The notes under the pieces are model-generated. The model was not told where the DNA came from. It ran no database searches and worked only from the letters and a program-made list of their open reading frames with translations. The translations under genes and the position numbers were made by a program. This document shows positions 1 to 61,370 of a stretch of 64,000 bases of DNA, piece by piece (the stretch's first letter is position 1; every line of letters begins with the position of its first letter). The stretch comes from Tridacna crocea (taxonomy: Eukaryota; Mollusca; Bivalvia; Cardiida; Cardiidae): NCBI GenBank assembly GCA_943736015.1, contig OX031061.1, forward strand, positions 64,362,192 to 64,426,191, given 5' to 3'.

Positions 1-219
1 ACCACACAATCCCTACTTTTGACGCCCCTGAGAAAGAAGCCTTTTGAAAACACTGTAGGAAAAGGAGAAAATGCTGATAACCAGCATTTTCTCCTTTTCC
101 CACAGTGTTTTCTACCCTTCACAAAACAAATTTCAAATTTTCAGTCACTTTCATTTTGTCGCCTGCAAATGCTTTCAATTTGAACAGGCCTAAAATTTTG
201 TCGTTTGGTAATGAGTTAA
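1..219 (+). mobile_element. TTAA palindromic MITE, subfamily A, cut by window start
   Basis: Right end GGTAATGAGTTAA at 207-219; central palindrome at ~48-110 with one mismatch (ctgataaccag). Non-coding. Family definition: ~228 bp, TTAA at both ends, ends CCC(A/T)TT..., long central hairpin. Confidence 0.85.
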
Positions 220-299
220 CATGTTAATATGACAATTTCTTTTGCTGGTTCATAAACTTTAATACTGTAACAAATTCAAAATGATTTAAAAACAAATCC

Positions 300-760
300 A
301 AAATTACTAGATGTTCTGTCACAGACGAGCCCCAAATTTTTGTAACGAGCCAAGCGTAACGAGAAAGAAAACAAGCAACAAGCTTTTAACAATTAACAAT
401 ATTTATAGTAGTTATACAAAGACAAAAGAGTACAATAAGATTTAAGATTGAATGTAACTGTAGAAGAAGAAATAGAATAATTCCCTCAAGTCTAACTTCA
501 AAGTCCACAATCACCAAGTAAGTCACTCCTATTTATATCAGCTTGGAAAATTCTAGATTAGTCTTTTCTAGCGAGATGACATCATGGATTAGTAAACAGT
601 TTGTTTACTAATAACCTGATTCTAAGAATAACCACAATGGAAAAACCACTAAATCTTTTCCAGAACAAGGTAAAACTAACAAAACAGCAAAGAAAATTAT
701 AAACCCATCCAGATCTATCCAAACCGGTGTCATCCCACTTCTGACACCATTTATCATGCC
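300..760 (-). mobile_element. Possible LTR-retrotransposon fragment (minus strand)
   Basis: On the minus strand a stretch with TATAAATA (530-537) ends in GGCTCGTTACA (341-351) and is followed by TTTGGGGCTCGTCTGTGACA (318-337), which looks like a primer-binding region of tRNA-Pro type. Further upstream on that strand, TGGTGTCAGAAGTGGGAT (732-749) is complementary to a tRNA-Leu 3' end. No gag/pol coding is present. The two primer-like sites do not form one simple element, so this may be two decayed pieces. Confidence 0.35.
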
Positions 761-1390: not shown

Positions 1391-1620
1391 ATTGACTCTT
1401 TACCAAAAAACCAAATTTTAGACTAGTCCAAATTGGACGCATTTGCAGACGACAAAATTAATGCGACCGAAAAATTGATTCTTTTTTGGGGGAAGGGTAG
1501 AAACCATTGTGGGAGGAGAAAATGCTGATTACCAGCATTTCCTCCTTTTCCTACAATGTTTTCAAAAGGTTTCTATCCCAGTGTCCTGTAAAACCAGTGT
1601 CATTGTGTGGCAGAGATTTA
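1391..1620 (-). mobile_element. TTAA palindromic MITE, degenerate A copy
   Basis: Core ATGCTGATTACCAGCAT at ~1524 with flanking GCATTTGCAGACGACAAAAT; both termini mutated (CTCTTTACCA and GGCAGAGATTTAA). Confidence 0.75.
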
Positions 1621-1951
1621 AGCATACAAAAGAATGTTTGTTTATTTCATGATAGATTTTAATGGTTGCATTGTGAACATTATAAGGTCCGGTATCTGAA
1701 CAAAACATCCTGTATGAAAATCAATGTTTCGTTAGCCTCTAGGGATTACGATTATTTTCACATGCATTAAGACTTTCAAATGAATTAAATTGCATTAAAA
1801 CGTTAATGTTGTGAACGGAATCGCACGGTATGCTAGAATTAAAAATGAAATCATTAACCGTTATATAAAAGACATTATGACTAAATCAGTTGCCATGTCA
1901 TCATGAAATTTTCAGTGTTACATGATAATGTGTCGTACTTTGGGAAAATGG

Positions 1952-2175
1952 CGTTACCAAACGACAAATTTTTGGACTGGACCAAATTCAAAACATCTGC
2001 AGACGACAAATTAAATCTTGTTAATATGATGATTTATGACTTTGATAGGATAGAAAATATTGTGGGAAAAAGGAGAAAATGCTGGTTACCAGCATTTTCT
2101 CCTTTTCCCACAATGTTTTCTATTGGCTTCTTTCTCAGGGTCATTAAAAGTCGGGATTGTTTGATAAATAGTTAA
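1952..2175 (-). mobile_element. TTAA palindromic MITE, subfamily A/B
   Basis: Starts GTTACCAAACGACAAATTT, core ATGCTGGTTACCAGCAT, right TTAA at 2172-2175. An open frame across it is a by-product of the palindrome. Confidence 0.8.
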
Positions 2176-2682: not shown

Positions 2683-2912
2683 TTAACCCTTTCCCAAACG
2701 CCAAATTTTGGACTCATCCAAATTGACAGCATCTGCAGATGACAAAAATCAGAATTGGTACAAATTAGCTTTTGGTCTCTGATAGGGTAGAAAACATTGT
2801 GGGTAAAGGAGAAAATGCTGGTTACCAGCATTTTCTCCTTTTCTCACAATGTTTTCAAAAGGTTTCTCCTTCAGGGTCGTGAAAACCAGGGATTGTTTGG
2901 TAAAAGGTTAAA
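2683..2912 (-). mobile_element. TTAA palindromic MITE, subfamily B
   Basis: Bounded by TTAA (2683-2686 and 2909-2912); ends CCCTTTCCCAAACG and GATTGTTTGGTAAAAGG; core ATGCTGGTTACCAGCAT. Confidence 0.88.
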
Positions 2913-5200: not shown

Positions 5201-5337
5201 GATGTAAGAGAAAATTTATTATAGCAGGCTGTAGCAAAGACCAGACCAAAAATTCTGGATTTTTGGGTGCCAAATAGGATGGTTTATTCCAGGAATAACT
5301 CGTTACCCAGGTTTAAATGACATTGTAGAGGAAAGAG

Positions 5338-5408
5338 TTTGAAAATATCACGGGAAAAGGTGAAAATGCTGTTAACCAGCATTTTCACCTTTTACCATGA
5401 TGTTTTTA
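5338..5408. mobile_element. MITE palindrome core fused to a tandem array
   Basis: Only the hairpin centre is present (GTGAAAATGCTGTTAACCAG with matching arm to ATGATGTTTTTA); then the sequence switches to the GTCCGTCG head of the next element. Confidence 0.65.
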
Positions 5409-6930
5409 TAGTGATCGTGCTGTGTCCGGCGTCCGTCGTCCGTCGTGCGTCGTGCGTCGTGAATCGTGCGTCGTCCGTCGTCAACCTTTTGCCTTGTGTA
5501 CGCTCTAGAGGCCACAGTTTTGGTTGGATACTCATGAAAGTTGGTCAGGATGTTTATCTCGATGAAATCTCGGACGAGTTCGAAAATGGGTCATGTGGGG
5601 TCACAAACTAGGTCACTAGGTCAAATCTTAGAAAAACCTTGTGTACGCTCTAGAGGCCACATTTTGAGTCGGATACTCATGAAAGTTGGTCAGGATGTTT
5701 GTCTCGATGATATCTCGGACGACTTTGAAAATGGGTCACGTGGGGTCAAAAACTAGGTCACCAGGTCAAATCTTAGAAAAACCTTGTGTACGCTCTAGAG
5801 GGCACATTTTGAGTCGGATACTCATGAAAGTTGGTCAGGATGTTTGTCTCGATGATATCTCGGACGAGTTCGAAAATGGGTCAGGTGGGGTCAAAACTAG
5901 GTCACCAGGTCAAATCTTAGAAAAACCTTGTGTACGCTCTAGAGGCCACATTTTCAGTCGGATACTCATGAAAGTTGGTCAGGATGTTTGTCTCGATGAT
6001 ATATCGGATGAGTTCGAAAATGGGTCAGATGGGGTTAAAAACTAGGTCACCAGGTCAAATCTTAGAAAAACCTTGTGTACGCTCTAGAGGCCACATTTTG
6101 AGTCGGATACTCCTGAAAACTAGGTCACTAGGTCAAATGTTAGAAAAACCTTTTGTAGGCTCTCGAGGCCACATTTTCAGTCCGAAACTCATGTAAGTTG
6201 GTCAGAATGTTTGTCTCGACGATATTACAGACAGGTTTGAAAATGGGATCATTCGGGGTTAAAAACTAGGTCACCAGGTCAAATCTTAGAAAAACCTTGT
6301 ACATGCTCTGGATGTCACATTTTCAGTCCAACACTCTTGAAAATTACTCAGAATGTTTGCCTTTATAATATCTTGAATGAGTTTGAAAATGGGTCATGTT
6401 GGGTCAAAAACTGGGTCAATAGGTCAAATGTTATAAACACCTTTTGTATGCTCTGGAGGACACATTTTCAGTCTGATACTCCTAAAACTTGTTCATAATA
6501 TTTGTCCTGGTGATACCTTGAATGAGTTTGAAAATGGGTCATGTGGAGTCAAAAACTAGGTCAATGGGTCAAATATTAGAAAAACCTTGTGTACACTCTA
6601 GAGGCTACATTATCTGCCTGATACTCTTCAGACTTGGTCAGAATGTTTGTTTTGGTGATGTCTCAAAAGAGTTTGATAATGGGTAATTGTCGGGTCCAAA
6701 ACTAGGTCACTTGATGAAATCTTAGAAAAACCTTTTGTACACTGTAGAGGCCACATTTTCAGTCCAATACTCATGAAACTTGGCCAGAATGTTTGTCTTA
6801 TTGATATCTCAAAAGTGTTTGATGATGGGTAATGTCTGATAAAAAACTAGGTCACTGGGAAACTAGATGGTGCATGGTTGGTCAATAAACTCAGGTGAGC
6901 GATTTCAGGGCCATCATGGCCCTCTTGTTT
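5405..6930 (+). repeat. Tandem-array element, ~145-bp units with GTCGTCCG head
   Basis: A GTCCGTCGTCCGTCGTGCGT head is followed by about ten ~145-bp units each containing CTCTAGAGGCCACATTTT and GGATGTTTGTCTCGATGAT; CTTGTGTACGCTC recurs at 5493, 5638, 5783, 5927 and 6072. Units decay toward the 3' side. It ends CTCAGGTGAGCGATTTCAGG, hairpin GGGCCATCATGGCCC, CTCTTGTTT (6922-6930). Open frames inside arise from unit periodicity. Confidence 0.88.
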
Positions 6931-7052: not shown

Positions 7053-7281
7053 TTAACCAATTACCACACAATCCCTACTTTTGACGACCCTGGGATAGAA
7101 GCCTTTACTAAACAGTGTGGGACAAGGAGAAAATGCTGGTAAACAGCATTTTCTCCTTTTCCCACAATGTTTTCTACACTTCACAAAACAAATTTCAAAT
7201 TTTCAGTCACTCTTATTTTGTTGTATGCAAATGCTTTATATTTGGACGAGCTCAAAATATTGTTGTTTGGTAATGAGTTAA
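7053..7281 (+). mobile_element. TTAA palindromic MITE, subfamily A
   Basis: TTAA at 7053-7056 and 7278-7281; left end CCAATTACCACACAATCCC; core GCTGGTAAACAGC with one central change. Confidence 0.88.
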
Positions 7282-7554: not shown

Positions 7555-7781
7555 TTAACCCTTTCCCAAACGACAAATTTTAGACTCTTCAAAACTCAAA
7601 GAGTTTGCAGAGGACAATTTCAAATTTGATAAAAATGGCAGAAAGTTCCCAAAATGGGTAGAAAACACTAGGGGAAAAGGAGAAATTGCTCGTTACGAGC
7701 AATTTCTCCTTTTCAAATAGTGTTTTCAAAAGACTTGTACTGCAGATATGTAAAAACAAGGGTTTTTTGGGAAAGAGTTAA
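7555..7781 (-). mobile_element. TTAA palindromic MITE, subfamily C
   Basis: TTAA at both ends; CCCTTTCCCAAACGAC start; core ATTGCTCGTTACGAGCAAT; outer stem partly lost on the right (CAAATAGTGTTTT). Confidence 0.88.
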
Positions 7782-8637
7782 TGTGGATATATATACTCTT
7801 GGGTTTAAAAAAAATCTATACAAATCATAGATTAGAATGGTTCGTTGACAAGCAAAATATACAAGGAACTAAAAGTTTCGATCGAATGTCTGTATATATA
7901 CGGGCTGTGCAGGCTGAAATGGATTGATAGTTTTCACAGCTGTGTTAGACCTCCTTTTCGCAGAACCTTGTTCAAATGTTTTCAACTTGGCAAGATCTAT
8001 CATTCCTTAGATAGGAAATGAGTTCAAAGTAACATATCTTTTTTTCTGTCTTTGTTCCTTTTCCTAATGAAAATTGAAGCTTGTTGATTGGATTCCCCCT
8101 CTCTGCAGCTATAACCGTAGGACCGTTGATGACAAAACTATTCCCCCGAAACAAAAGTACACTTGTTTATCTGAGAAACGATGTTAAACTGTTGAATTTT
8201 TAAATCGATAAGATTGTGTTCGTTAAGTAATATTTCCGAAAATTTACTCTTAAAACTTGGAAAATAGTCCCTTATAGAATACAGAACTATTTATCCTACG
8301 CGCTATCTTACACATGACATGGGTTATCCGGTATGCGTGAAGTCAATAGAGGGCTGTTCCAATATTTCCCGATAATGTGTGAATAAACCCGTAAAAAGAC
8401 AGATTGACAAATTAAATTCGCTAATGGCGGAATTTCATTTCTAAAGTGTGATGGGTGATCGTTCCGCTGAGTTAAAACGAAACTGACATTTGAACGGCTC
8501 ACTGAGGGGAAAAAATAACACTTTCTTTGGAACTTCGTAATGATGGAATACTGAGAAAGGACTGTAATCCTTTCCATCACAGACTTATTTCAGAGCTAAC
8601 ATGGACCAAGATACATTTGAGCGTTTCTATGGAGTTT

Positions 8638-8865
8638 AGCTCTTTACCACACGAGAAAATTTTATACTGGTCCAAATTGAAAGCATTTGCAGACGACAAA
8701 ATAAAGGTGACCAAAAAAATAGAAATTTGCCCTGGGAAGGGTAGAAAACACTGTGGGAAAAGGAGAAAATGCTGGTTACCAGCATTTTCTCCTTTTCCCA
8801 TAGTGTTTTCAAAAGGCTTCTTTCTCAGGGGCGTCAAAAGTAGGGATTGTGTGGTAATGGGTTAA
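8638..8865 (-). mobile_element. TTAA palindromic MITE, subfamily A
   Basis: CTTTACCACACGAGAAAATT start, core ATGCTGGTTACCAGCAT, right end GTGGTAATGGGTTAA (to 8865). Confidence 0.88.
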
Positions 8866-9188: not shown

Positions 9189-9416
9189 TTAACCCTTTTC
9201 CAAACAAGCCCTGGTTTTTACGTGTCTGCAGTAAAAGTCTTTCGAAAACACTGTGGGAAAAGGAGAAATTGCTCGTAACGAGCAATTTCTCCTTTTCCCA
9301 CAGTGTTTTCTACCCTTTTTGAGAACTTTCTGGCATTTTCTCCAAATCTAAAATTGTCGTCTGCAAACTCTTTTGGTTTGGAAGAGTCCAACATTTGTCA
9401 TTTGGGAAAGGGTTAA
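9189..9416 (+). mobile_element. TTAA palindromic MITE, subfamily C
   Basis: TTAA at 9189-9192 and 9413-9416; GCCCTGGTTTTTACGTGTCT near the left; perfect stem CACTGTGGGAAAAGG with ATTGCTCGTAACGAGCAAT centre. Confidence 0.92.
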
Positions 9417-9699
9417 AAGCTATTTGCCTTGCAGGTAAATTAATAATGTGGTAGAGCGGTCCTTTGACAGGCAGAAACTGATGAGTGGCAAAAAGTATCT
9501 ACCAAAGTTTTCTTTTTCACAGAGCTTGCCTCATAGAAGGGCGAACAAATATTTCATTTGGGGGAGAACATAACCTGTTGTACAGTTATCAAAAACACTT
9601 TTGGAAAAGGAGCAATTTTTCTTTTCGACACTCTTTCTGATAGCTTTCTGCTTCAAGTGAGATAAGTACTGAAGTCTTTATAGTAGACATCAATATTCA

Positions 9700-9915
9700 G
9701 ACCTCTCCAATTTGAATGCATTCGCAAACAACAGAAGAAATTTGGTTTTAATGATTGAGTTTGTCTTCATAATGTGTAAAAAACACTGAGGACAAAGGAT
9801 TAAAAACGTTGATCATTAGCATTTACTCTATTTCCGTGGAATGTTTTGAACAATCATCTCCTAAGTTTTATTTTTCAAAATAATTGATTTTCTCTTTTGG
9901 TAACGGTTCGAATTA
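9700..9915 (-). mobile_element. Relic of TTAA MITE
   Basis: CCAATTTGAATGCATTCGCA and a weak hairpin around GATCATTAGCATTTACTC match the family poorly; old copy. Confidence 0.5.
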
Positions 9916-10964: not shown

Positions 10965-13900
10965 GTACGTATAATTATAGGCCAAGAGTTGCAGCATTGA
11001 CCGGCAACGGTTTAATATTTTTAACGTTATTTCCTTCAAGTTTTTTTTTGTTGGTTTTTAGCTCTTTAATCAACTATTTAGTGATGACCAAGCAATTTGT
11101 CGCAATGATCTTTTCATAAAAAATATCTTTTTTATCTCCAGAGGATCGCATAAGCATAACAGAAGGGGGAGAATTACATCTCCGTGACGTCAGAAAAACG
11201 GACGGGTCCGAAACATTTCGTTGTACGGCAACATGTAACATCACCCAAACAGAGAGAGTCAGTTCACCAGCCGGCCTTAACATACACGGTATTGTAGCTT
11301 TGTTTGCTTCTATGAGAGTTTCACGCCGTTTTAACCGTTTAGGTCGCGTCAAAAACGGCCGGTGCATCTACGCATCTCTCTCCCGTCTTTCTCACAGTAG
11401 TGTATACGGACACAACTATCCACTCCTTGCTTTTCTCATGCGAATCATTGGTGAGAGGCGAAAACAAAGCAGAAAGAAACTTTGCTGCAATCGGGTTTGG
11501 AATCCGCAACGACCAGGTCACGAGTCGGATACGTTAACCATCCGGGAGGGCGGCAAAATGGCACTAATTCACGCATTTGCAACGCAAAATTTTAGATTGG
11601 TCAATTTTAAAAGCAAATGCATACGAAAGACTGAATTTTGCTAAAACTAACATTTTTTTTTCATTTGAAATGGTAGATACCATTTTCTCCTTTTCCCCAC
11701 ATTGTTTTGAAATATCCCTTTTCCATTTTGTCATAAAACTCTGAACTGTGTAGAAATATATTTTCAACAGAGTATAGATCAATGAACGGACGCGTCAGTG
11801 TCATTTGATATGTTATCCCTTTACCCTATAAGGCATTTCTATGGAATCTCTAATTGACCCTAAATGATAGCAAGGATGAAGCAGTTTCTTATGTGTATAT
11901 GACACCTTTTGATAGCATAGAAAACATTGTGGCAAAAGGTGAAATTGCTTGTCACGAGCAATTTCACCTTTTGCCACAATGTTTTTCCAAAAGCTCCTAC
12001 AAGCAATGCGTAGAAATGATTATCTATGGAGCAAAGGGTTAAAATAACATGCGAATGGAAAAAATTGTGCAAGAAAATTACACAAATAATGAGATTCTGA
12101 ATGACATTTTGACCTGACCAAGTTTATAAAGTGTACATCATGGATGAATAAAGAAGAGAAATAACACAAAACAGCCAAACCTTTTGGAAAAACAGACCAA
12201 ACCACTTTCTTTACACCTATGCAATACAGCTAGATAGACGATTTGATAGAAAAAAAGTTGTTAAGTAGGTTGTACGTCTAGAAAAATAATACTAACAACA
12301 GTCAGATGAGTGATTGTTTAGAGAGTTTGTCCAACGTTATAACCTATTTGCGAGTACATTTCTAGCGTCACCGTCACTTAGTACTTTCAGTACTTTGATT
12401 CATATTGCAGACCCTCCAGCCGGTGGTAAAGGTCCCTCCATTGAAGACAACATGTATCAGGATGTACAAGCAGATATCGGGGAGAAGGTAGAACTGACAT
12501 GCGTATCGGACGGCTGGCCCCTGCCCGCCTATAGATGGTACAAAGACAACACTATGGTCAATTTGAATGACCCCAGATACTCACAGCTTGGTGGCAACTT
12601 GGTCATTTCGTCCGCCGTTCCGTCCGACAGTGGGGAGTATAGATGTAATGTGAGCAATTCAAGAGGCTCGGCAGCCGCCATCAGACAATTAACTGTTAAA
12701 GGTATTCAACCACTATACTGATGGATAATATTTAACCCTTTACCACACAATCGACGACCCAATGCAAGAACCATTTTGAAATCATTGTGGGAAAAGGAGA
12801 AAATGCTGGTAACCAGAATTTTCTCCTTTTCCCACAATGTTTTCTACCCTGCTGAAAACAAATTTCAATATTTGAGTTACATTTATTTTGTCGTTTGCAA
12901 CTGTTTTCAACTTGGATTAGTCTAGAATACAGATGAACGAAACGTAGGGATGCATGGATAGGTGAACTGGCCACCGCGATATAAGAATAATGTTAAAAAA
13001 CGGTATTTAACATAAATCAATAAATCAATTCAATTTTTCCATCCGACAGTCCATCCATCCATCCATCCATCCACCCATCCATCCATCCATGAATCCATCC
13101 ATCCATCCATCCATCCATCCATCCATCCATCCACCCTTCCATCCATCCATCCATCCATCCATCCATCCATCCATGAATCCATCCATCCATCCATCCATCC
13201 ATCCATCCATCCATCCATCCATTCATCCATCCATCCACCCTTCCATCCATCCATCCATCCATCCATCCATCCATCCATCAAAAACTTTCTCCATGAGAGT
13301 CATTAAATAATGAAATTATTCCTAACCATCAGCATTAATCATCAAGTATTTTACTAAACTTCTCAATCTTGTTTATCATTTGCTTAGATAACCCCTAGGC
13401 TGCTAAACGCGACTCACCGACCTTTTGCGGACAGTGTAGATCAAGATCAGACTGCACAGAACGTGCAGTCTGATCTTGAATCTACACTGTCCGAGAAGGA
13501 GATATAATTTCCTAAAACATAACTTTTAGATAACAATATCTGTGTTTTTAATATCGAATTGAAAATTTCTATTTATTTGTATAGCCGGAAAAGGGTAAAA
13601 TGGTCAAACTGCGTTCCTATAACTTTAGAAAATTTTCGTAGAATACGTTTTCGAAAGAACGGTTTTAACCCATTACCACACAAGAAAAATTTAGACTTGT
13701 CCAAATTGAAAGCATTTGCATACGACAAAATAAAGGTGACTGAAAAATTGAAATTTGTTTTGGGAAGGGTAGAAAACACTGTGGGAAAAGGAGAAAATGC
13801 TGGTCACCAGCATTTTCTCCTTTTCCCACAGTGTTTTCAAAAAGATTTTTTTTTTCAAGGGCGTCAAAAGTAGGGATTGTGTGATAATGGGTTAACTCCT

Positions 13901-46900: not shown

Positions 46901-49900
46901 CATGATACAGGCGTGGATGAAATCTTGGTCCATAATTATATCCTACTTCATTTAACATGATCCTGACCTGTATGCCAAATGAAATAGTAGGTATATAAAT
47001 AGAATTCCGACTTTTATTAGGGAACTTTCACGGGAAGGTAGCGATTAGAATTTAATTTGTGCATATCGTACGGAAAATTTCCGCGTCTATTCGACACAAA
47101 ACTGAAGGCCTGTCTTATGCAGAGGTTAGAAATAGAATTTTTGAGATTGCTAAAGTATGCTCTCGTTCAGCCTTATGTTGTAAATTTTGCAGGTTTTGTG
47201 CTGAAATACAGAAAAGAGCATGATATATGGAAAGAAGTTCACCTTGGATCAAAGAATAGAACATTTACAGATAATAACTTACTCTGCGGAACAGGCTACA
47301 AATTCTCTATTACAGCATACAATAAAGTTGGCCACAGTGGACTGAGCAACATGGTGTCAGCAAGGACTAATGGTTCAGGTACACATATTTACTATTTTGT
47401 GATGACAATAAATGATTTACTTAAAGGTGTCAATTATTTTGTTGTCCCAAGTCTTCCACATATGGTATTTGTATAGGGGAAGGGGGTTCACAAATCAAAT
47501 AATTTCCCGATCTAATCTTACATTAATCAAATATATATGTCTCTGGAAAAACAATGTATGAATTTCAAAGCTGACGTGGATTTATGATGTTATGTATTTT
47601 CTCTGGGATACTTTTGAAATTGAAGGAGACCTCTTCAACATTTGATGCTTACTTGGCATAGCGGCACCGTGAAGCCATGTAATCTCGTGATTTTTGCAAT
47701 GATGCTTTGTGAGGATACTTTTTATGTTTTCTGTCATGTCACTCTAATGAATGAAACACTATTTTAAGACATATTTCATTTCTTAGCTCCAGTAGCGCCA
47801 CCTATGAGTGAAATACTGAGAACAGCAAATGTTACATCGATTGAGCTGGATCTACGAACATGGCAGATAGATTTTTGTCCAATCAGATTTTATTCCATCA
47901 AGTACACAATACTTGGAGATGAAAATAACTGGGTTGAAGTTACGAACAGCGTCAGCTGGAACACGGTATTTCATAGTTATTTAGATTGGAATCAACAATA
48001 TAGAGGACAATCAACTGCTTGTAATTTTTAATAAATCTGTCACTAGAATGGGATGAGATGCGCGTGAAAAAACGAGTCCGAAGAACATCCAATCTTATTC
48101 CAGTAACGGGATTTAACCCATTACCACACAATCCCTACTTTTGACGCCCCTGAGAAAGAAGACTTTTGAAAACACTATGGGAAAAGGAGAAAATGCTGGT
48201 AACCAGCCATAGTGTTTTCTACCCTTCCCAGAACAAATTTCTTCTTTTTTGTCACTTTTATTTTGTCATTTGCAAATGCTTTCAATTTGGACCAGTCTAA
48301 AATTTTCTCGTGTGGTAAAGAGTTAAAGTAACTACTTGATTATCCTATTTAGTGTATTTCTAACTCAACCTTTTTTTCCAATAATTATCAAGAGTCGTGC
48401 AATATTAGCAATATAGGAAATATTCTAAAACTTTATCCTCTCTTGTGATAATGCAAACATTGTCATCAATAGTGGTGTTATTCCCTTTGAAATTCCAGTA
48501 ATCCACTAATAAGAATGTAATAAATAACATTACAAATTTCAAAAGAACCTTGAATCCTTCTTCACACTGACGAAATGTAGCTCGGAGAGATAAAGAACAT
48601 ATTACTGAAGAACGAATCTTGCTTCTAGAGACAATCAACAACTGTTCCTGTTTATCTCTTGCACAAGCGGAACCGAGATTGATTTTAGTTATCATGAGCT
48701 TGGGCTTAATGCTAAAATGTTGCTAGGATTTTTGAAAGGATTATAAAAATTGTAACAAGGCAAAAGACGAATAGTGTATGATATTTTGCGAACAGTTTGA
48801 GGAAGACCACAAGCTGTTTCTAGCAGTTAGTAGAATCAATAAATTCTAATAAGTCATTCTGGAGTAATAAACAGAAAGAAACTAACTTTGTGACGTGACA
48901 AAACTTTCGACTCTTGGCACAGGTCAGATACAAAGATTTTCGGTTTTATACCACTTGCAACAAGTTACGTAAAGATTATTTTCGGATACCAATTTGTTTG
49001 CTAGAGTTATTTTGATAAGGAACGGAAGGACTTGTTAGGAAACAATCTGTTTATCAGGCTCAGTATATACAATGATTATTACATCAGTTCCTGTTTTCAA
49101 AAATGTATTTTCGATGTACACACAACACAAATTCCGTTATGGAGGTGTTACTGATGTATCTGTGTTTGAACATTTATTGTCTACATATAAATATCAGGAA
49201 GCACATTGTAAAGGAATTAGTGGATTTGTATTAATTATTAATCCATTCAATGTTTAGATGATGTAGTCAAATTGTCCTTGAATTACTTACCGACCCAAGT
49301 AGGGGTTACACTTTTAGAAATAACTAGAGAGATTTTAACAATTCCAGGTTATCGTCTGATGGTAGCTATTACACATGCATATCGTTTAAGACTGTTTTTG
49401 GACATTTTCGGAGTTGTCTTTTACGTGTCGGTTTTTTTTCTTATTCAGACAATATTTACTGTAGAAGATCTACACCCAGCGACCAGATATAGAATGAAAG
49501 TGTCTGCACACAGTCATGCTGGGTCAACTGAGTGTAACCTCATCTTCTCAACTCTAACATTTTCTGGAAGTAAGAACTTTCAAACTTCGTACGTAAATCT
49601 CAAACCCCCCCCGCCTCTTTATAAAATTGGTTTCATAAGAAAATTAATAATATTTTCAAAGACTGCCATTTCATCGATAAGACCTTTGAATTGTATTTTA
49701 AGTACTTTTCACGCATAACCAAGTAATCCTTCGTTTTCACAACCCTTTTGAGTCTTTTTGAAAACCTTATGGGAAAAATCTCCGTCAATTGAACCACATA
49801 ATTTTATAATATTTCTTCTGCAAATGCTTTGAATTTGTACGATTCTGAAATGTCCTCTGTTGGTAAAACTAAAAACAACATCGAAGACAGCAATAGAATA

Positions 49901-52900
49901 TGTGTTTTTCATGCTTTGAGAATAAACAGTTACATTTTTGTTCTATCCAGGAATAAAAGTTAGATTCTGGTTTACTTGAATTTTTCGACACTAACGGCAA
50001 TGCAGATTCAAAAGGAAATTACCTGTTGCCTTGTACAAACATATATTGGTCTAAATCGTTTGCGAAAGAAATAGGTTTCACATAATGAAAAATAGTTGTT
50101 CCTTCAATATCATACAGGTACATTGGATCCTCTGTATGTCGTACATAAAGACGAAGTTTACTTTTATGAGAAGTTGCACATTATGGTGCCACTGTGTGGA
50201 GCTTTCTTAGTCCTTATTGTGCTGTCTGTTGGAATAGCATTGTTTTGTACTAGGAGACGTCAACTTATACGATATAAAGGTAATTAATGAAATCATTATA
50301 AAACTTCCCATAATCTAGAGGAATCCCCTGGTACGTTGATTTTTAGAAGTACCTTTTTCGATGTTATCGGTAATGTTGATTTTAGTATTTCCCACAAGAT
50401 ACAATTAATTTTCAGTCAGAATTGCATTTAGATGTGTTTGCATAAATCAAGAAAAATAAACAATAAAATACAGTTTATGATTATATTTTGCTGGCGAATA
50501 AAAGTAATTGCATTTACCCGAAAGGTTGATCAGTAGGAAACTCTATCATTTCACACCTCTACAGACAACGAGATTATCGCTGGAGGTTCTTTATCGTCTG
50601 TCTCCCTTTCCGGTGCATTTTGACGGCGTCTCAATCATTATACTGAAAGCCGTATAGCCTAAATAATAGATAAGTGAAAAAATATTACAAATGCACTTGC
50701 ACTGACGTTACAGTATGCTTGAATTATTACCTTTGTTTACTGTATGTTTAGACATTATGAAAAAAATGCTTATTTCAATAGAAATTGTAAATGTTCAAAT
50801 TAAATTTATAGGTTCCGCAGAAAACATGGAGATATGTTGATAAGACAAGCGACAATAATTGAAATATTTTGACAAAGTTATGCTCCTTTTTTGACATAGA
50901 ATTTTCACTAACAGCAACAGCCCCCGAGGGTTGGCATCCGCATGCAGTGCTCTTGTTCCAAGTACCTTGATATCCTAGTTTCATCTACCACAATATTGAT
51001 TTGTTCATTTCTCATTTGGTTTGATGGACCAAACGTCTAGACTATTATACGCTCATGTGTTGAAACGATTTCAATTGCTTATTTTAGTGTTGTATTTTTC
51101 TTTAAAGAAAACAGCTCTAATATCAGACGTGATATAACAGCAGAAACGTCGTTAATGAATGACCTAGACAAACGTATCAACTATGAATTAGAGAGTCCAC
51201 AAGATGGTCGATTCAACAGTCGCAATGTGAACCTTTTGATCTCACTCAACTCAGATGAAAACCTTGTGGGTAACAATGGAGCCTGGTGTTTCCATGACAG
51301 CAGTAAAACAACAAGTGATAATGCTTCTATTGGTCGTTCTGGAATAACAGACACCTGTAAGTAAAATTATGATTGTAATGGAACATGAAAATGATGTAAA
51401 TGGAAGTGTCTTCTATACTTTTCCAAGTCCTCCCTTACATTATAGGCCTGTTCATTGATTGAAATTGGTCAGCCAATGAAAATTTCGACATTTTGTGATA
51501 GACAAATGGAGCTGAACGAACCCTGTTGCAAAAAAAAAGTGCTTCTCTTCTATAACATTACTACATGTACATGTAAAACAGAGGCAATGGGCAAATGCAC
51601 TACTTTAGTAACAGTGTTTGATGATCGACCGACAAAAGTTGTCGGTTTCTGTAATAGACTTAAGAAGCTTCATTGGCCTAAGTCTAAACAGATTGAAGTG
51701 GTTAAACAGAAAGAATGATAAATTGAAAAGGAGAGCAGGTCCGACTGTATGTATCTTTGACAAACAAATCATAAAAGCTTTAGACTCATCTTGATATATC
51801 TTTGCTTGACAATCAAATTTTAGATTTTGCATTTAGAAGCATTTGCAGACGACTGTAATTAAATCAAAAGCTCATGGAAAACATTGCAAGAATGGAGGAA
51901 AAACGACAGATCCCATTTTTTTTTCCCCAAATTTTACGTACAATTTTAGTAAAGTCTATCTTCTTTAGGTTTGTAAAAACTCCTGATCATTTAGAAAGTT
52001 AAGCAGTTGGAAAGAATGATGATTTGGAACTACTCTGAATTTTTACGATAGTAAAATAATTAACACGTCAAACCAGATAAAGATATCATCATTCAATGTC
52101 TAATTTTTAGAGAATGTTCTATTTTACTGTCTTTCTTTTGTTTTTAGATGAAGATGCTAATATTAATCCGTACGCTACATTTAATGAACTGAAGCTAGAG
52201 TTCAATGAAAATCCAACCTACCACAAAGCTGACCCGAACTCAGATGATGATTCAGTGAGTTTAGAGAAGGCAGAAGCACAAAAAGCAGTAAGTTTATCAC
52301 TTCAAAACTTCGAACTTAAAATATCTTCATTGCGTTTACAGATTTTGGAAGTGCTATGTCCAGTTTTGACAAAACTGACTAATGCCAATTAGCTTTTGGT
52401 ACGGCTCGCTTTCGGTGTGTTGAACAGACAACAGACTGATTTATCTTGAGTAAAGGTCTGCAGTCTGTAGCTTTTTACAGTCCTGTAGTAAATATCTTTC
52501 TGGAACAATTTAAAGATATTAAAGATAAGGATTTCATTTCTTTTATAGCACCATGGGCTGCCAGATGCTATTTATTGATGGCTTAATGTCTCTGTATAAC
52601 CTACCCTACATTCAAAAACCAAACATACACGAGCATTCACCAGAAGTTACTAGCTGTTATAAACATAAAGCAAAAAAATTTCGACTTCTTACTACTCTAG
52701 GGAAAAGGGCTTTTGAAACATTTTGGCAGAGGAGAAAATGCCTGAAACAAACATTTTCTACTTTTCTGCCAAGTTTTTTTTTTTGCATTTGAGAGATAAG
52801 TTTTATCACTTTTGCTACACTTCAAAAGTCGCCTTTTAGGGTTTAGACTTAAAATTTATTTTTGGATAAAATTTGGATAAAATTTGAAGTGCTTTCCTCC

Positions 52901-55900
52901 AAAGACGGATAGGACGTGTTCTTTTTTTGTAAAAATGTTCAATCACAATCTGTTATAAAGTGTTTCATTTATCACAGATGCTTGTTCAGTTGGAGAAATC
53001 AGATGAACCGAAATATGTGTCTAAAGGAACCAGCCCAGACAATCTGGATCATCATAGTTACGACAACCAAGGTGACACTTCTTTTTTTTCATAGATTTAC
53101 CTTTATTTTAGAATGATTTTATTTGGTTTCTATGTACATGTGCTTCTCTTTAAAAGGAACAATGTGGTTAGGGTCATTGCAAGTCAAGATCAATGATTAA
53201 CACTAGTTATACTAGTGAAACCTACAACACACAAAAAAATAATATATAGCTGTCTTTACAATATGTTAAGAGATTTTATGTCACCGTATTACGAGCCTCG
53301 CCCTGTGAAAAGGGGATCTTCTTCATCTTTGAAAAGCAAAGATCCAGGTAAGCCTTCGGAGTTCTTGCTCGCTGACATGGTTGAAACTTTTTCTACATTT
53401 TCAGCGTTTTTAGGATCCATTGTATGTGGGCATTAAGGAAATTGTTAGAATAAATTGATGTCATTGATTCGCTATTATAATATTATATTATGATGACAGG
53501 CCTGAAAAAAAAGCATCATAGAGATGCTGTAAATCCGCTTTAGCAAGCGCATGGCTCATATTTTCTATGCTTCCTAAATTCATAACTGAGGTAAAACTGT
53601 CTGTATTTCAGCGATGGTGCTAAGCCCACGGAAGTACGCAAGTGCGGACCAAATTCATGCCTTATTTACCATGGCTCCGCCTCGACCACAAAGTGCTTAC
53701 AGTAAAAACAGAAGTCATGGAACAAGGAGTACTCCAAGTGATAAAGGTACATACACTGGAGTAGTTGCTTTGTCAGAAAAAAAAATGTATTTTGACATTT
53801 TTTTACGTGAGGCTGCAATACGTGCACTTCAATGTTAATGTCGGCTTTAAGTTGACAGCAAATATCAATACTAGTTTATATCATCAAAAACATATAAACA
53901 TAGAGTAAAATATGTTTCCATGTCACGCTTGTCCTCGGTATAGATCAGTATCACGCTTGTGCTCTTTGCAGGTTTGTTGGTATTATGTTTTTTCTCTGGG
54001 TAGGTTTGTTGGTATCAAGCTTTATTTTGTGATAGAATTTTTTTATTGAGGAAGGTATATAAAGTAGAAGAAAGAGTGCAATTTAATCGGTTAATGTTTT
54101 ATTACATAGAATTATTTCAGAAATGTTTGGCCAATTACAAGTATCATAAAAGAGATTGATTTGTTAAAAAAGATTTTTTTCCAAAAGCCAAATGAGAAGG
54201 CGTCCATGAAATTCACAGGCATTTCTCAGTCCTTCTAATGTTACGGGAGACCACTCCTTTCTGCATGGCATACTCCCGATTTAAATACAATACCTGGCTA
54301 CTGCGTCAGGGAGATATCTCTTTGGCTCAGTGGTTAGGGTATTGGCTTTGCGTCCGGGAGTTCGGAGCTCGAATCCCGCTCCGATCCTTATTTCTGCCAT
54401 GCATTTATTCATTTGTTTCTTTGTTACGGACCTCGTTCGTAAGACTAAATAGACTTTAAGCCGATTTAATCAGTATGTTATGTAATTTGGAACCTTCAGC
54501 GTTGAGTTTTGGTTATTATTTTTTTTTCAAATTCACTTTTAGATCATTCTCATTAATGCTTTGAGATGAAGTTGTTCTTGAAGACCATTAGACTCAATTA
54601 TATTGGTTATTCATTTCTTTCGGGTTACGGAAGAAAAAAATAAGGATGTTGTAGACACCCCTATTGTAATAATTATAAACAAAGTTCTTCCTAGGTAAAC
54701 AAATGTTATGTTCCTTTTTTTCATAGAACTTCAAAAAAAGCATTGTGAGAAATTGAGCCATGCTATTGGAATGGTGGGTTTAATTCATTAACGTGATGCA
54801 GTTCTATGACAATGAAGTCATCACATAATCACATTTTTGTAGATTCATAAATTCCATTTGTGTAACGTTCGATTGACTCAAGAGGTAAAATGGTCCTTTG
54901 ACATGCAAATTGATAATTTGTATAACCTTTCCATCAATCGGTACTTGTTGAAAATGCATCAAATCTCGTTTTTTATAGAACATGACTCCTCAATAGTAAA
55001 AAATTACAATGCCATATATTTAGTTTTAGGCTAGGTAGAAGAGTGTGATAATGTGTGATATAGTAAGCTTTCGTTCCATGTTATGTCACAGAGATTTGGG
55101 CGAATATCACAAACCACTCTCGAAATCAATCTAAGTTTAATTGTAAATTCGCGTGTAACATAATTATGAAGTGCTGAAACTTTTTCTTGATTGGCTTTTA
55201 AGAAACTGTACTCTTCTAAAATTTCTTTCGAAATTTAAGAGAAGTGTTGAGAAAGAGAAAAAAGAATGCAGTTTAGCGTGATGAGTGAAAAAGGGTTAGG
55301 AGCATGTATTCACCAATCACTTCACCCTAAATTTGTATTCTCAGTCTCACTCTTGACCTAAAAAGTAACACAACTTCTGATTAGCTTAATCATGTGCTTT
55401 AACCCATTACCACACAATCCCTACTTTTGACGCCCCTGAGAAAGAAGCCTTAAGAAAACATTGTGGGAAAAGGAGAAAATGCCGGTAACCAGCATTTTCT
55501 CCTTTTCCCACAACGTTTTCTACCCTTCACAAAACAATTTTCAAATTTTCAGTCACTTTCATTTTGTCGCCTGCAAATGCTTTCAATTTGGACCAGTCTA
55601 GAATTTTGTTTTTTGGTAAAGAGTTAACCAATGCAACATTCGGTTACTTTGATTAAAAAGTAACACAACTTCTGATTGGCTAAATCATGTGCTTTAACCA
55701 ATGCAACATTCGGATACTTTGACAATTGGCCTTATGATGGTATTGAGAATGGTGGTGAATACGAATCTTGTTGTTTAATAGGCAGCCAGCGTCATAGTCT
55801 CATATCCAGTGTAACAACAGTATCAAGCTCAAGGGACGAGCTGTTGGAGGCATTTGAAAACTTAAACAGAAATCCCCCACCCCCTGTTGTGTATGAGACA

Positions 55901-58900
55901 GAGGCTGATTCCCTCTCACAACCTACAGATAGTTCTACAGGTAAAATAAGTAATCATCTTTAACTCTCTAACGGACGATTTATTTTCGACTATTCAAATA
56001 GACGTGTTTGTTCCTTTGTTTGTCTGTACAGTCTTAAGGCTGTTTTTTTTAAACATTTCAGTCAATACCGCTGTGGTTGGTGCGCCTATCCATATTTTTT
56101 TCCGGGTAAATATAGGGGCATTTCGCATAAAATTCTTCCCAAGCCACTTGCTTTACTTTCCTAAATAAACTTCGTTGAAACAACGATCACAGGTGAATGA
56201 ATAATTTCTCAATGACTATAATGACTCTGCGGAATAATGACTATAATGACTGTTCAGAATAAAAATGGCTGTGCTGGGATTTAAACAAACGAACCTGGTC
56301 TAAAGTTCTGTACCCTATCGACTGTGCCAACGGGCTTCGCTTGCCTAAATTGTATGTATCTACAGTAGACAAAACAAACAATGTGTCTGAAATTTCGAAG
56401 GGTATAAACCTATTTCAAAAGTAGTATTATTTGGTTGGTATTGTTCTTATAACATGGATAAGGATGTGTACTTTAGTGACCCTTCCTCTTGATTTAGGCG
56501 ACCTAGTGACCTAAAAATTTTTAAGTAATCTATATCAAATATATGTTTCTCGAGAAAACTGTCGCTCCTCTGATAAATCCAATAGTGATGAGGAGATGGA
56601 GAAGTAACAGTGATGTACACCCTGGCATGGATTCAAAGATAAAAACGATTTCTATTGACAAATCTGGATTTTGGAAGTGTTCCCTCCTCATCAGTATCGG
56701 ATAAATCAGAAGCCGGACAGATTTATCGAGAGACAGTATATTTGATAAACGATTACTTAAACGTTTTAAAAAGGCTGTGTTGATCTTTGAATTCATGTCA
56801 GTGTTTTTATAAGTATTCTTGAAGCAAGGCAGAAAATGAATACTTATTTCCCGACCCTTTGAAATGGGTGAGGTATTTTGAAAAGGTTACAAAAAGAGAC
56901 AAATACCACCTGAATTATCATATTAAGCAGGCATTATTCCAGTTGAATAAAATAATTAGTGATTTGAAATAAGCGAATAAGTTTCTGTAAAGGCTCTGAC
57001 CCCAATGGAAAGGAATGTTTTAATAAGCTGTTTAAAAATGAACTGCGTAGGCAAGGAATGGTTTTAGAAGATACCACAACAACACAAATTCGGAAGAGGG
57101 AACGAAAAGGTAGAGACTTACAACTTACAAAACATTAAAGCGAGGTGAGCAAGTTGATGCTAAAAAGTCACTGAATAGGCCCCAAAGAAGTGTCTCGTAT
57201 ATAGACAAATTTTGATTTTAGAGATGACTCCTCCACCTACTCATCAGTGTAACATAGACCGTTGCAGTATATAAGATGAACCATTTAAACGGAGGAATAA
57301 TATGCAGTGCCATAAAAGGAGCGTTCATCACCAGGACCAGACTCTGATGCGGAACATTCCGAGGATATGGAGGAATTTTGAAAAGGGGGTATCAAAACTT
57401 TACCAACAAATCAGATTAAGTCTGAGCACTACGATTTCCGGTCAACCTATTGGAAAGCAGTGGGTAATATCTTAACGAACAGGATGGTGTGATTTAATGC
57501 ATTGATGAATGATCCAGTATACAAGATTATGAGCAAAACGTCCAGCGATCTGATGGACATGGCGGATTTTACTGGAGCCCAAGCTTGGAAATATGCCATC
57601 AGCAAACGCTAATATCTCTTGGCTTCAATCCTTGATGACTTTGACACACCGGCAGTCGAAACATTTGAAGATAATCTTTAAATGTGCTGAAGTGGCCATA
57701 TCAGAAAATAACTAAATAATGCAATCCATTTTTTTTTTAACAAATGACATTGCATTCCAGTGCTTCTCTTTGTTTAAATTTAGATGAAGCGGAAATGCTT
57801 CATGTACTTGACACCTCTATCGATAGGATTTTGATTAATTGGCTTATTTATCTACATCTACATTCCTGAAGATTATTATATCACTTTCCCAAACAGCAGG
57901 CGCCACGTGTTCTTTTGAGGTTCAGAAATGCTTCCTTAACTTTGACACCTCCCTCAGATGAAATGTTGATTAATGAGCTTGCTTACCTACATAAGTAGGT
58001 CAATAGGTCGCCTAGTTCGAGAACAGGGGTCGCTTAAGTACATATTCTTATCCATGTTATAAGGACACTACGACCCATACTATACTACTTTGGGAATAAG
58101 AGAAAACGCTGGCTACCAGCATTTCATTTTCCAACGGTGTTTTTCGAGGTTTTTTTTTTGGGGGGGGGGGTGATAAAAGCATGATATTTGGAAACTGCAC
58201 GTCTATTCCCGCTAATTTCATTTCTTTCTCCATTATTGTAGGAACAGAAGCTGGAATATGCTTATTCACACAGTCTCCACCCCAGCCTGACGAACAAAGG
58301 GAAGCGTCGTGCGAAGTCCCGCGATATGAAAGTAAGTAACTGTAGAATTAACAGCTTTAAGATCAGACAATTATACAAATTCTTTCGGCACTGTCATCTT
58401 TTTCAAGCAGTTACATGTGTTGTCTTATTTCTATGTGTCTGCATGTCTTACAAAGAATTGATTAAAAATTGCTATGTGCACAAATCGATGGCTGAGTGCA
58501 ACACTATCCTAAGTGCCTATAAAGTATAGGCACTTAGGATAATGTTGCACTCACCCATCGAAATGCATTTCATTCTTTGTCGATTATAATATTCAAAACT
58601 GTAATAGTTTTTTTTTTCTTTTTTTTTTTGTTTGTATTTAAGAACTGAAATTGGTCATCTTCAATTTTAGAGATAAAAGTTTGATAAATATCGTTTTAAA
58701 AATAGTTTCAAGAAAATCGAATGAATTATGCTCTTTGAAAAGGGGCTTAATGCATCTGGGAAAAAAGTATCGACCAAGAGCAGTCAGTGCACTCTGCACA
58801 GGCTGATATTGGAACAAAACATTTTACACATGTTAAGGTACATACAACATCACGAGTCAGTCAGACTTTTGGAAAAAAAAAATGATTGTATGATTTCATA

Positions 58901-60018: not shown

Positions 60019-61370
60019 GTATCAATAATCATAAATATTTGAATGAGTGTCTAGGTAACTGACTAATGTCTAACTATACATATGAAAATTACGAGTTCAT
60101 ACAGTAATTATGCATCTTTGTGTCAATTCTAAATGCAAAAAAATATAACCTGAAAACTTATAGAACTTTAGAAACATGAGCACGTCAATGTCGTTCTCAC
60201 GATTGCAACAATACAGATTAAATAATCTGCTTAAAATCGCTTTTAATTAATTAAGCATTTAGGGTACAAATCAAGCCAAGATGACGCTCAAACTTGAAAT
60301 ACTTTTTATTGTCTACAACACTGTTTTAGACACTTTACGTATGTCAAAGTTTGCAACTTTACTACACACAAGCTATCCCAAATAAAACGTCATCATTCAG
60401 TGACCGTGTCCTCATTTTCAAACATGCAAGCACACCAACAAAATTTCTTATAGATAAGGCGTGTAGACAAAAATAATGAATGCAGCAACCACCCTTCTGT
60501 TCATTTTTTAGGATAAAAAATGCATACTTGAACTATTTCTGCTGATCTATTAACGTTCAAGCTAAACTTTAGGCTGGTTTTCCAATCTGTTGGAAGATTT
60601 TATCGATTTCTACAGCAATGAATGACTGTTTCTTTTTCATCTCTATGAAAACATGTACCATAAGGTGGTAAAATCACGGTTCGATGATAGTCAATGTTCA
60701 ATTCGCAGTCATTTCTTTTTTCACAAGTATCTAAATGTGTTCTATCAGAGGCTTCACTTGTTCCAATATGGAAAAAAGTAATGGATAATTTTTGCTTTTG
60801 CATTTGTGTTACAAAATATACATGGTTTGTTAATTTAAAAAAAATCCTATAAAGTAAGGAGAAATAGTGATTACCTGCATTTTGCCATTTAGCGAATGGT
60901 TTGTAGTGCTTTCCTCATCAGGGTCTTTCAAAAATGTTATTTTTGGTTCGTGATTTTTGCCAACATTGTTGTATATAAAAAACATCAGAGTTTTCAAGTT
61001 TAGTTTGGATGACAGGCTTCCGGACGGAAAGTATAACTTATTTTCATGTTAACATCCGCGACTGTCCTTTTTCCAGGACTTAATGCAGTTCTCTAAATTT
61101 TGATATGCAAAAGAGACAGCATTAAAACCAGTAGAAATAAATGCCGCACATTTTCAAAGCTTTGTATACAGATTTTAAATTGTTACATGTTTTTTTTTAA
61201 CCCTTCACTAAACAATTCCATAGTTTAGTGACCCCTTTGGGGATTGCTTCTGAAAGCATTGCACTCTTTTTCCTTCAATTTTTCTTTTCACAGACAAATA
61301 CTTTCATAGAACTCTGTACATCAGACGTTCTAGTGAAAATGACACATTTACTTTTATTGTATTCTTATCA
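60019..61370. other. Downstream of last exon, no gene recognised
   Basis: A TGA at 60,060 closes the read-through frame. AATAAA at ~60,382 could serve as a polyadenylation signal if the gene ends here. Two MITE relics (60,835-60,960; 61,198-61,345) are present. No further exon with family similarity. Confidence 0.45.

What the first reader, a model, noticed from the sequence alone, without database searches (positions are those of the whole stretch)
1..61345. MITE hairpin arms co-vary between subfamilies and between copies
The ~28-bp stem stays self-complementary while its sequence changes: GTGGGAAAAGGAG vs GTGGCAAAAGGTG on the left is matched by CTCCTTTTCCCAC vs CACCTTTTGCCAC on the right; AATGCTGG/CCAGCATT vs ATTGCTCG/CGAGCAAT; and copies with CACTGTG on the left mostly have CACAGTG on the right, whereas CATTGTG copies have CACAATG. 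Paired change at six or more positions, even between individual copies, implies arm-to-arm conversion or selection for the fold.
Basis: seen in the sequence. Interest (0 to 1): 0.72.

Follow-up and report, generated by a model that had tools for sequence, protein, structure and literature searches.

The report
Million-copy DNA hairpin with matched arms
A short mobile DNA element, present about a million times in this animal genome, carries a hairpin whose two halves change together because one half is sometimes copied onto the other and because lines that keep a well-paired hairpin appear to be the ones that spread.

Summary
The window has 51 copies of a ~229-bp TTAA-flanked, piggyBac-type MITE with an internal 61-bp palindrome. 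Five stem pairs differ between subfamilies, on both arms; all five subfamily consensus stems pair 30/30. In individual copies most stem changes are one-sided (43, against 2 paired). Yet exact genome counts show pairing: among otherwise perfect 49-bp hairpins (68,413), A>T at position 12 is on the left arm only in 622 and on both arms in 47 (5.7 expected if right equals left), while an unpaired double control gives 1 (1.7 expected). Twenty of the 47 have unrelated flanks. One copy has three clustered paired changes and the spacer T becomes A too often: footprints of arm-to-arm template switching. At my rough rate switching is too slow to keep stems perfect, so a filter on spreading lineages is inferred. 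Unexpected: about 1.2 million copies, 21% of sampled bases, and an inner stem that changes 2-6.5 times less than comparable bases. New variant of a known kind.

The parts
1..219 (-). MITE copy, subfamily 5C (cut by window start)
1393..1616 (+). MITE copy, older
1952..2175 (+). MITE copy, cluster 11
2683..2911 (+). MITE copy, cluster 10
5305..5406 (-). MITE fragment with hairpin, degenerate flanks
7053..7280 (-). MITE copy, subfamily 5T
7555..7781 (+). MITE copy, subfamily 8
8637..8865 (+). MITE copy, subfamily 5C
8747..8807 (+). 61-bp palindrome (30-bp arms, spacer 8777) of the copy above
9189..9416 (-). MITE copy, subfamily 8, perfect stem
9688..9850 (+). MITE copy, old
11580..11756 (+). MITE copy, old
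11814..12042 (+). MITE copy, subfamily 1
12732..12936 (-). MITE copy
13665..13895 (+). MITE copy, subfamily 5C, perfect stem
14058..14255 (-). MITE copy, old, right arm largely deleted
16171..16386 (+). MITE copy, subfamily 9
17950..18131 (-). MITE copy, subfamily 5T, perfect stem
20029..20218 (-). MITE copy, old
20340..20518 (+). MITE copy, old
20622..20847 (-). MITE copy, subfamily 9
21015..21193 (-). MITE copy, subfamily 5C, partly deleted hairpin, abuts next copy
21195..21421 (-). MITE copy, subfamily 5T
22361..22598 (-). MITE copy, subfamily 1
23729..23956 (-). MITE copy, subfamily 8
24302..24530 (+). MITE copy, subfamily 9, perfect stem
26620..26846 (-). MITE copy, old
26921..27083 (+). 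MITE copy, old
27090..27317 (-). MITE copy, subfamily 8, perfect stem
28641..28869 (-). MITE copy, subfamily 5T
30008..30243 (+). MITE copy, diverged flanks, inner stem intact
30865..31011 (+). MITE copy interrupted on its left by another palindrome
31483..31665 (-). MITE copy, old
32773..33001 (+). MITE copy, subfamily 5T
33472..33697 (-). MITE copy, subfamily 5T
34243..34449 (+). MITE copy, old
35455..35685 (+). MITE copy, subfamily 1, clustered change in right arm
36388..36616 (+). MITE copy, lone member of cluster 2, perfect stem
37772..38000 (+). MITE copy, subfamily 5C
38547..38758 (+). MITE copy, subfamily 5T
40213..40439 (-). MITE copy, subfamily 5C
41194..41420 (+). MITE copy, subfamily 5T
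41975..42203 (-). MITE copy, subfamily 9
43006..43194 (+). MITE copy, subfamily 1
43636..43871 (+). MITE copy, subfamily 1
44747..44834 (+). MITE fragment, subfamily 1 type, abuts next copy
44833..45060 (+). MITE copy, subfamily 5C, perfect stem
45928..46153 (+). MITE copy, subfamily 8
48113..48326 (-). MITE copy, subfamily 5C, left arm partly deleted
52675..52834 (-). MITE copy, old
55399..55627 (-). MITE copy, subfamily 5T; the joined flanks match a repeat unit at 55654-55722 that lacks the insertion
58087..58159 (+). MITE fragment, old

Best explanation
The hairpin is a conserved internal part of a very abundant TTAA-type (piggyBac-like) MITE. Its two arms change together through two processes. 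First (shown by footprints), in individual copies one arm is now and then copied onto the other, most simply by replication template switching at the hairpin; this turns a one-arm change into a paired one or erases it, and can invert the 1-nt spacer. Second (inferred), only lines whose palindrome is intact keep spreading, so each subfamily starts from a perfect stem, while inserted copies mostly collect unpaired changes. The inner stem (positions 12-27) is also held in sequence. What the palindrome does for spreading is not known; a DNA-level role in mobilisation (dimer binding site or extruded hairpin) is my best guess.
For: Five of five subfamily consensus stems pair 30/30; fixed differences at five stem pairs are on both arms, while private changed pairs are 43 one-sided, 2 paired, 2 both-changed unpaired (0.28 paired expected, P 0.028). 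Genome counts in otherwise perfect 49-mers: none 68,413, left-only 622, paired 47, expected 5.7 (right-only assumed equal to left-only); control double left 12 + right 13: 1 observed, 1.73 expected from 622 and 190. Twenty of the 47 examined: flanks at least 17% apart, none of 190 pairs under 5%. Copy L066: three paired changes within four stem positions; its arm string occurs 3 times in 1.05 Gb, twice as the two arms of this copy (the third place was not examined). Spacer T>A: 5 of 63 young copies against 0.78 expected (one of the five, 21015-21193, has a damaged hairpin); pooled 22 of 30 changed spacers are A, flank share 36%. Copies with 6 or fewer stem changes: 15 paired, 4.8 expected. Simulation: switching at about 3 per hairpin per unit divergence leaves about 11 mismatched pairs and 4.5% perfect stems.
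Against: The filter is inferred from perfect consensus stems and a rough simulation whose rate rests on few events. Copies with the inverted spacer are not better paired: mean 4.5 mismatches (17 copies) against 3.1 for T-centred ones (125). In 16 older window copies paired changes are at chance (7 against 5.0, P 0.23). Outer stem changes in copies are as frequent as flank changes (66 observed, 62.0 expected), so pairing gives no protection in place. No autonomous partner with the same TIR was recognised in the 30 loci examined of 118 transposase matches. In the nine of these whose ends match over 12 or more tip bases, no palindrome lies between the ends, so the hairpin is not a general piggyBac feature here. 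Terminal repeats are not clearly constrained (observed/expected left 0.90, right 0.68), which is odd if copies are on moving lineages. Right-arm-only counts at positions 12 and 20 were not obtained and are assumed equal to the left arm; of 20 'left-only' copies examined one (L141) is a right-arm change with an inverted spacer.
Confidence: 0.6

Rival explanations
1. Selection for the fold alone: each arm mutates independently and a second, compensating point mutation is favoured in spreading lineages; no arm-to-arm copying.
For: All five subfamily stems perfect; four of the five fixed pair changes keep pair strength (A-T to T-A, G-C to C-G).
Against: A three-base paired cluster seen in one copy only; excess of complement spacers; paired doubles in 20 of 20 examined copies with unrelated flanks while unpaired doubles sit at chance.
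Confidence: 0.15
2. Arm-to-arm switching alone, with no function: palindromes persist because they repair themselves.
For: Same footprints as above.
Against: One-sided changes far outnumber paired ones (43 to 2, 75 to 7); simulated stems at the estimated rate are only 4.5% perfect; if the missing inner-stem changes had been removed by unbiased copying, about as many should appear as paired changes, but position 20 has 2 paired and 95 left-only.
Confidence: 0.12
3. The palindrome is a two-fold symmetric protein-binding site (transposase or host factor); arms co-vary because both half-sites follow the same protein.
For: piggyBac and piggyBat transposases bind palindromes with paired cysteine-rich domains, and piggyBac ends carry 19-bp palindromes (PMC11707139, passages). 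Here the conserved blocks are two 16-bp half-sites around a 7-bp tip.
Against: 61 bp is much longer than 19 bp; variable positions stay paired as well; does not explain recurrent pairing in single copies.
Confidence: 0.2
4. RNA-level role: the folded transcript feeds a small-RNA pathway (as proposed for hairpin MITEs such as Made1/mir-548, PMC1784062, search listing only) and is selected for that.
For: Very stable fold as RNA, -52.3 kcal/mol against -13.0 for shuffles; copies lie between DSCAM-type exons.
Against: Also a strong fold as DNA; no Rfam match in the window at gathering scores; four of five fixed changes cannot pass through a G-U pair; no expression data.
Confidence: 0.08
5. Artefact of sequencing, library preparation or assembly (in vitro copying of arms, collapse of repeats).
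For: Hairpins are hard to sequence; not testable here without reads.
Against: One-sided changes are kept in hundreds of copies (622), the unpaired control is at expectation, and changes at the tip are not raised (15 observed, 22.3 expected).
Confidence: 0.04

Closest known systems
CMITE, coral piggyBac-type MITEs (PMC2872659; abstract, outline and passages read)
   Same: TTAA target site; internal region more conserved between families than the ends; can form tandem arrays; internal region of unknown role.
   Different: About 100 bp; the words palindrome, hairpin and secondary structure do not occur in that text; the 60-bp internal consensus printed there has a longest perfect stem of 5 bp and no match beyond 7 bp to the two of our consensuses compared. 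Ours is ~229 bp with a 61-bp palindrome.
DINE-1 of Drosophila (PMC2374699; passages read)
   Same: Non-autonomous element whose hairpin stem differs in sequence between groups but stays paired; authors infer compensatory mutations.
   Different: Inserts between TT, stem 7-11 nt near the 3' end, compared between species; here TTAA, internal 30-bp stem, within one genome.
Template-switch (quasipalindrome) mutation (PMC8794818 abstract and start; PMC8604942 abstract and passages; PMC3820800 search listing only)
   Same: Arm homogenisation, paired multi-base changes and spacer inversion.
   Different: Described in what I saw for yeast genes and RNA genes; here in a repeat with tens of thousands of identical hairpins in one genome.
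piggyBac and piggyBat transposon ends (PMC11707139, passages)
   Same: TTAA superfamily; palindromes bound by transposase dimers.
   Different: 19-bp palindromes near the tips; here one 61-bp palindrome in the interior.

Membership tests
piggyBac/TTAA MITE superfamily | TTAA at both ends (target duplication) | tested here: met
   18 of the 20 clustered window copies with both ends readable (of 31 clustered) have TTAA at both; the joined flanks of 55399-55627 match a repeat unit lacking the insertion, with one TTAA
piggyBac/TTAA MITE superfamily | Terminal inverted repeats with CC[C/T]T at the tip (definition as printed in PMC2872659) | tested here: inconclusive
   Consensus tips CCCTTT in subfamilies 1, 8, 9, but CTCATT left and CCCATT right in subfamily 5
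piggyBac/TTAA MITE superfamily | Mobilised by a piggyBac transposase; autonomous partner with the same ends | tested here: inconclusive
   118 transposase matches in the genome, a lower bound; ends examined in 30 loci, several TTAA CCCTTT..., none recognised with this element's TIR. In L033 the best end pair does look like it, but those ends belong to two whole MITE copies beside the gene
MITE | Short, terminal inverted repeats, uniform size, high copy number | tested here: met
   ~229 bp; 90 copies in 80 kb of genome sampled at preset places
CMITE | Internal region more conserved between families than the rest | tested here: met
   Stem identity 0.83-0.97 against flank identity 0.47-0.77 between four cluster consensuses; compared with flanks as a whole, not with TIRs alone
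CMITE | Sequence similarity of the internal region | tested here: not met
   Only 7-bp matches to two consensuses
DINE-1 / Helentron | TT insertion, subterminal repeats, 3' hairpin with 7-11 nt stem | tested here: not met
   TTAA ends and internal 30-bp stem
Template-switch mutation | Clustered paired changes making both arms alike | tested here: met
   L066; 47 paired doubles against the control
Template-switch mutation | Spacer inversion | tested here: met
   T>A excess at the 1-nt spacer; a 1-nt inversion cannot be told from a T>A transversion in any one copy, and A-centred copies are not better paired
MITE-derived microRNA | Processed small RNAs | not testable with these tools
   No RNA data; no Rfam match in the window

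The most novel reading that the evidence does not exclude
The inner stem is a self-preserving DNA module: in about a million copies, even in inserted ones, it loses sequence 2-6.5 times more slowly than bases in the same sequence context nearby, because the hairpin is repeatedly rebuilt or protected in the chromosome (by arm copying plus an unknown bias or bound factor), so the palindrome outlives the transposon that carries it.
Probability: 0.2. Interest if true: 0.85.

Novelty: new variant of a known kind. Interest (0 to 1): 0.6.

Why it matters
Whether paired changes in stems come from two selected point mutations or from one template switch is an old question, usually studied in few genes (recalled). 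Here one genome holds 68,413 exact copies of a 49-bp hairpin, so paired, one-sided and control double changes can simply be counted. The result favours recurrent switching on top of a filter. Compensatory change alone is then weak evidence for a functional fold. The element, at about 21% of sampled bases, is also on the scale of human Alu (recalled comparison).

Tried and rejected
Chance or independent decay: rejected by the permutations across all copies and inside flank clusters and by genome counts with the unpaired control. Age differences among copies as the cause of the paired excess: rejected, the unpaired double control is at expectation (1 against 1.73). One amplified paired subfamily: rejected, 20 of 47 examined, all with different flanks. 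Conversion between copies of different subfamilies as the cause of the cold inner stem: no copy with the full set of another subfamily's alleles at positions 11, 18, 23 and 28 among the 31 clustered window copies or the readable ones of 39 fetched subfamily-8 copies (read by eye; L064 has one foreign-type base on one arm). Base or triplet composition as the cause of the cold inner stem: rejected (34 observed, 75.2 expected with triplet context). Rfam, one IMG/VR pattern scan and one prokaryote-genome pattern scan: no match. A branch count on the flank tree gave internal changes 6 paired, 8 unpaired and terminal changes 11 paired, 153 unpaired; six of the 8 unpaired internal ones lie on the two root branches and come from where the tree is rooted, so I do not use it as support. 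Dropped rows: CpG sites and variants shared by two or more copies of a subfamily were left out of the rates; variants above a sharing limit; one search used 204 of 247 copies (at least 25 readable pairs), and near-duplicate copies (L109) remain in its older class; one search kept 67 of 83. The inner-stem boundaries 12-27 were chosen after seeing the table (39 new, 5 window copies; 27 observed, 61.8 expected) and searches are later data, still includes the 31 window copies.

Full report
What is there. The window (G000:C6:64362192-64426191 in an unnamed 1.05-Gb genome) carries immunoglobulin and fibronectin-III exons of a DSCAM-type gene on the + strand; the organism was not identified. Among the exons lie 51 copies of one short element. 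A full copy runs from 140 bp left of the palindrome centre to 88 bp right of it, 229 bp with a TTAA at each end. Of 20 clustered copies with both ends readable, 18 have TTAA at both. The joined flanks of copy 55399-55627 match a neighbouring repeat unit that lacks the insertion. Ends and target make it a piggyBac/TTAA-type MITE, with the reservation that one large subfamily has CTCATT/CCCATT rather than CC[C/T]T tips.

The hairpin. Each well-kept copy has an internal palindrome with arm AACAYTGTGGGAAAAGGAGAAAATGCTGGT or a subfamily variant of it, a 1-nt spacer and the complementary arm. The copy at 8742-8810 folds as RNA at -52.3 kcal/mol (shuffles -13.0) and as DNA at -35.4 (shuffles -6.1).

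Subfamilies. Flank distances, without the hairpin, over 45 copies give four clusters with at least two copies (17, 5, 5 and 4); the largest splits by stem position 5 into 5C (8) and 5T (9, two of them mixed at position 5 and placed by flanks). Between cluster consensuses flanks are 0.47-0.77 identical and stems 0.83-0.97. All five consensus stems pair at 30 of 30 positions. They differ at five stem pairs, on both arms each time. Two pairs (23 and 28) are shared by subfamilies 1 and 8, although the flank tree puts 8 with 9 and copy 2683 (93% bootstrap): the same double change arose twice, reverted, or was exchanged.

Individual copies. Relative to their consensus, the 31 clustered copies show 43 one-sided changed pairs, 2 paired and 2 changed on both arms without pairing. 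To avoid choosing copies by their hairpin I searched the genome with the left flank of subfamily 8 only (the best 40 listed of 656 candidates), fetched the 39 other than the window's own and pooled them with the 5 window members: 75 one-sided, 7 paired (1.7 expected), 2 unpaired doubles. Three of the 7 lie in one copy, L066: TGTGG became ATTAG on both arms. That arm string occurs three times in the genome, twice as the two arms of L066. In the copies in hand with at least 25 readable pairs and at most 6 stem changes (154), 15 paired changes stand against 4.8 expected; 9 against 3.2 after dropping diagnostic positions and position 29; in the 50 with more changes, 38 against 24.8. In 16 older window copies alone, with diagnostic positions dropped, 7 against 5.0 is not significant.

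Exact genome counts. The tool states that pattern counts are whole. For a 49-bp hairpin (stem positions 7-30, centre T on either strand): 68,413 perfect; A>T at position 12 on the left arm only, 622; on both arms, 47. With right-only assumed equal to left-only, independence predicts 5.7 (P 4e-27). A control double with the same left change and the neighbouring, unpaired right position 13 occurs once, against 1.73 expected from 622 and 190. So the excess is specific to pairing. I fetched the first 20 of the 47 listed: no two flanks are closer than 17%, so these are separate events or very old ones. Twenty left-only copies also have unrelated flanks (closest pair 12.5%); one of them, L141, is a right-arm change with an inverted spacer. 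Position 20 has 95 left-only and 2 paired (0.13 expected).

Spacer. In T-centred subfamilies 5 of 63 copies have A at the centre (0.78 expected from flank T>A), 1 has C. Over 168 pooled copies (188 minus subfamily-1 type and gaps), 22 of 30 changed spacers are A, against a flank share of 36% (P 4e-5). Against the simple reading, A-centred copies are not better paired (4.5 mismatches, 17 copies, against 3.1, 125 copies). In the later second random set the centres are T 37, A 6, C 6, G 3, gap 7, a weaker excess and partly subfamily-1 copies. Centres are A in 4 of 20 perfect, 3 of 20 paired and 1 of 20 left-only copies (these patterns admit only T or A). Spacer inversion with arm homogenisation is the described footprint of template switching in yeast (PMC8604942, passages).

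Rate. A toy simulation of point mutation plus whole-arm copying shows that about 3 switches per hairpin per unit divergence (my estimate from the spacer excess, doubled for switches that leave no inversion) leaves about 11 of 30 pairs mismatched and 4.5% of stems perfect. Five perfect consensus stems therefore need something more; I infer that lines with an intact palindrome are the ones that spread.

The inner stem. Positions 12-27 change less than expected from flank rates in the same triplet context: 34 observed, 75.2 expected over 70 copies, more so on the left arm (9 against 37.5) than the right (25 against 37.7), while positions 1-11 are neutral (66 against 62.0), the tip is 15 against 22.3, and the terminal repeats are 0.90 and 0.68 of expectation. 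In subfamily 8, with the right flank (not used in the search) as yardstick, it is 27 against 61.8 for the inner and 44 against 47.6 for the outer stem. In the genome counts the same change in the same triplet (GAA) is 6.5 times rarer at position 20 than at 12 (95 against 622). Copies outside the clusters, too, keep the inner stem better (0.90 identity against 0.68 for flanks and 0.83 for the outer stem, 20 copies; flank identity there may be lowered by unsampled subfamilies). If the changes were all made after insertion this would be a protection in place; if many were made on moving lineages it is ordinary constraint. Neutral outer stem and left terminal repeat speak for the former, the widely diverged flanks around perfect hairpins for the latter (20 of the first 23 listed, all in the first 0.8 Mb of C1; identity to the nearest of five consensuses 0.60-0.98). 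I leave it open.

Abundance. Forty stretches of 2 kb at preset positions contain 90 copies at score 28 or more, in 30 of the 40, covering 17,138 of 80,000 bases; the reversed sequences give none. This extrapolates to about 1.18 million copies (0.89-1.48 million). In those stretches 13 of 60 neighbouring pairs abut, in the window 2 of 50, as if one copy at times inserts into the TTAA of another, like the tandem arrays of coral CMITEs (PMC2872659).

Comparison. Coral CMITEs share the TTAA target, the conserved interior and tandem arrays but not the sequence or a long palindrome. DINE-1 is the precedent for a transposon hairpin that changes sequence yet stays paired (PMC2374699). Nine paper searches on MITE, piggyBac, palindrome, hairpin, template-switch and bivalve, mollusc or clam terms (several lists capped) listed no paper whose title or abstract start describes this element; I saw passages or abstracts of six papers only (PMC11707139, PMC8794818, PMC8604942, PMC2374699, PMC2872659, PMC10294476).

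Noticed in passing
3917, 4655, 4776, 58970 (centres): A second palindrome family (arm ...GTGTCGTCTCGGATCAGCCTGCGCAG), spacer 1-3 nt.
   Followed up: no
10658, 22211, 29227, 29382 (centres): A third palindrome family around TGATTGGCTAAACC; 10658 and 29227 differ by T/C at two stem positions on both arms, so paired change may be general for hairpin repeats here (read by eye).
   Followed up: no
30824 and 58523 (centres): A palindrome of about 80 bp seems to be a complete insert; at 30824 it interrupts a copy of the MITE.
   Followed up: no
17410, 18266 and 27498 (centres): Further palindromes with 26-28 of 30 arm positions paired and 1-3 nt spacers.
   Followed up: no
5492-6856, 25343-25710, 43915-44174, 61382-61694, 61819-63404: Long tandem arrays with 145-, 161-, 66-, 108- and 161-bp units.
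   Followed up: no
12314-12721, 16785-17132, 18706-19266, 24746-25120, 35716-36081, 47042-47476, 49242-49718: Open frames on the + strand with Ig and fibronectin-III domains, including the DSCAM C-terminal Fn3 model: exons of a DSCAM-type gene.
   Followed up: partly
L014-L019, L023 (genome loci): Autonomous-looking piggyBac-type elements of about 2.76 kb with TTAA CCCTTTATATAC ends and transposase matches without stops; no palindrome of the scan between their ends.
   Followed up: partly
stem positions 12-27 of the copies: Inner stem changes 2-6.5 times less than comparable bases in the same context, the left arm least; cause open.
   Followed up: partly
random stretches L039-L058 and L098-L117: About 21% of sampled bases belong to this one MITE family; 13 of 60 neighbouring copies abut.
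   Followed up: partly
48113-48326: A copy with a 15-bp deletion in the left arm whose remaining left arm matches a right-arm change that it shares with copy 8637-8865, as if one switching event both copied and deleted.
   Followed up: no
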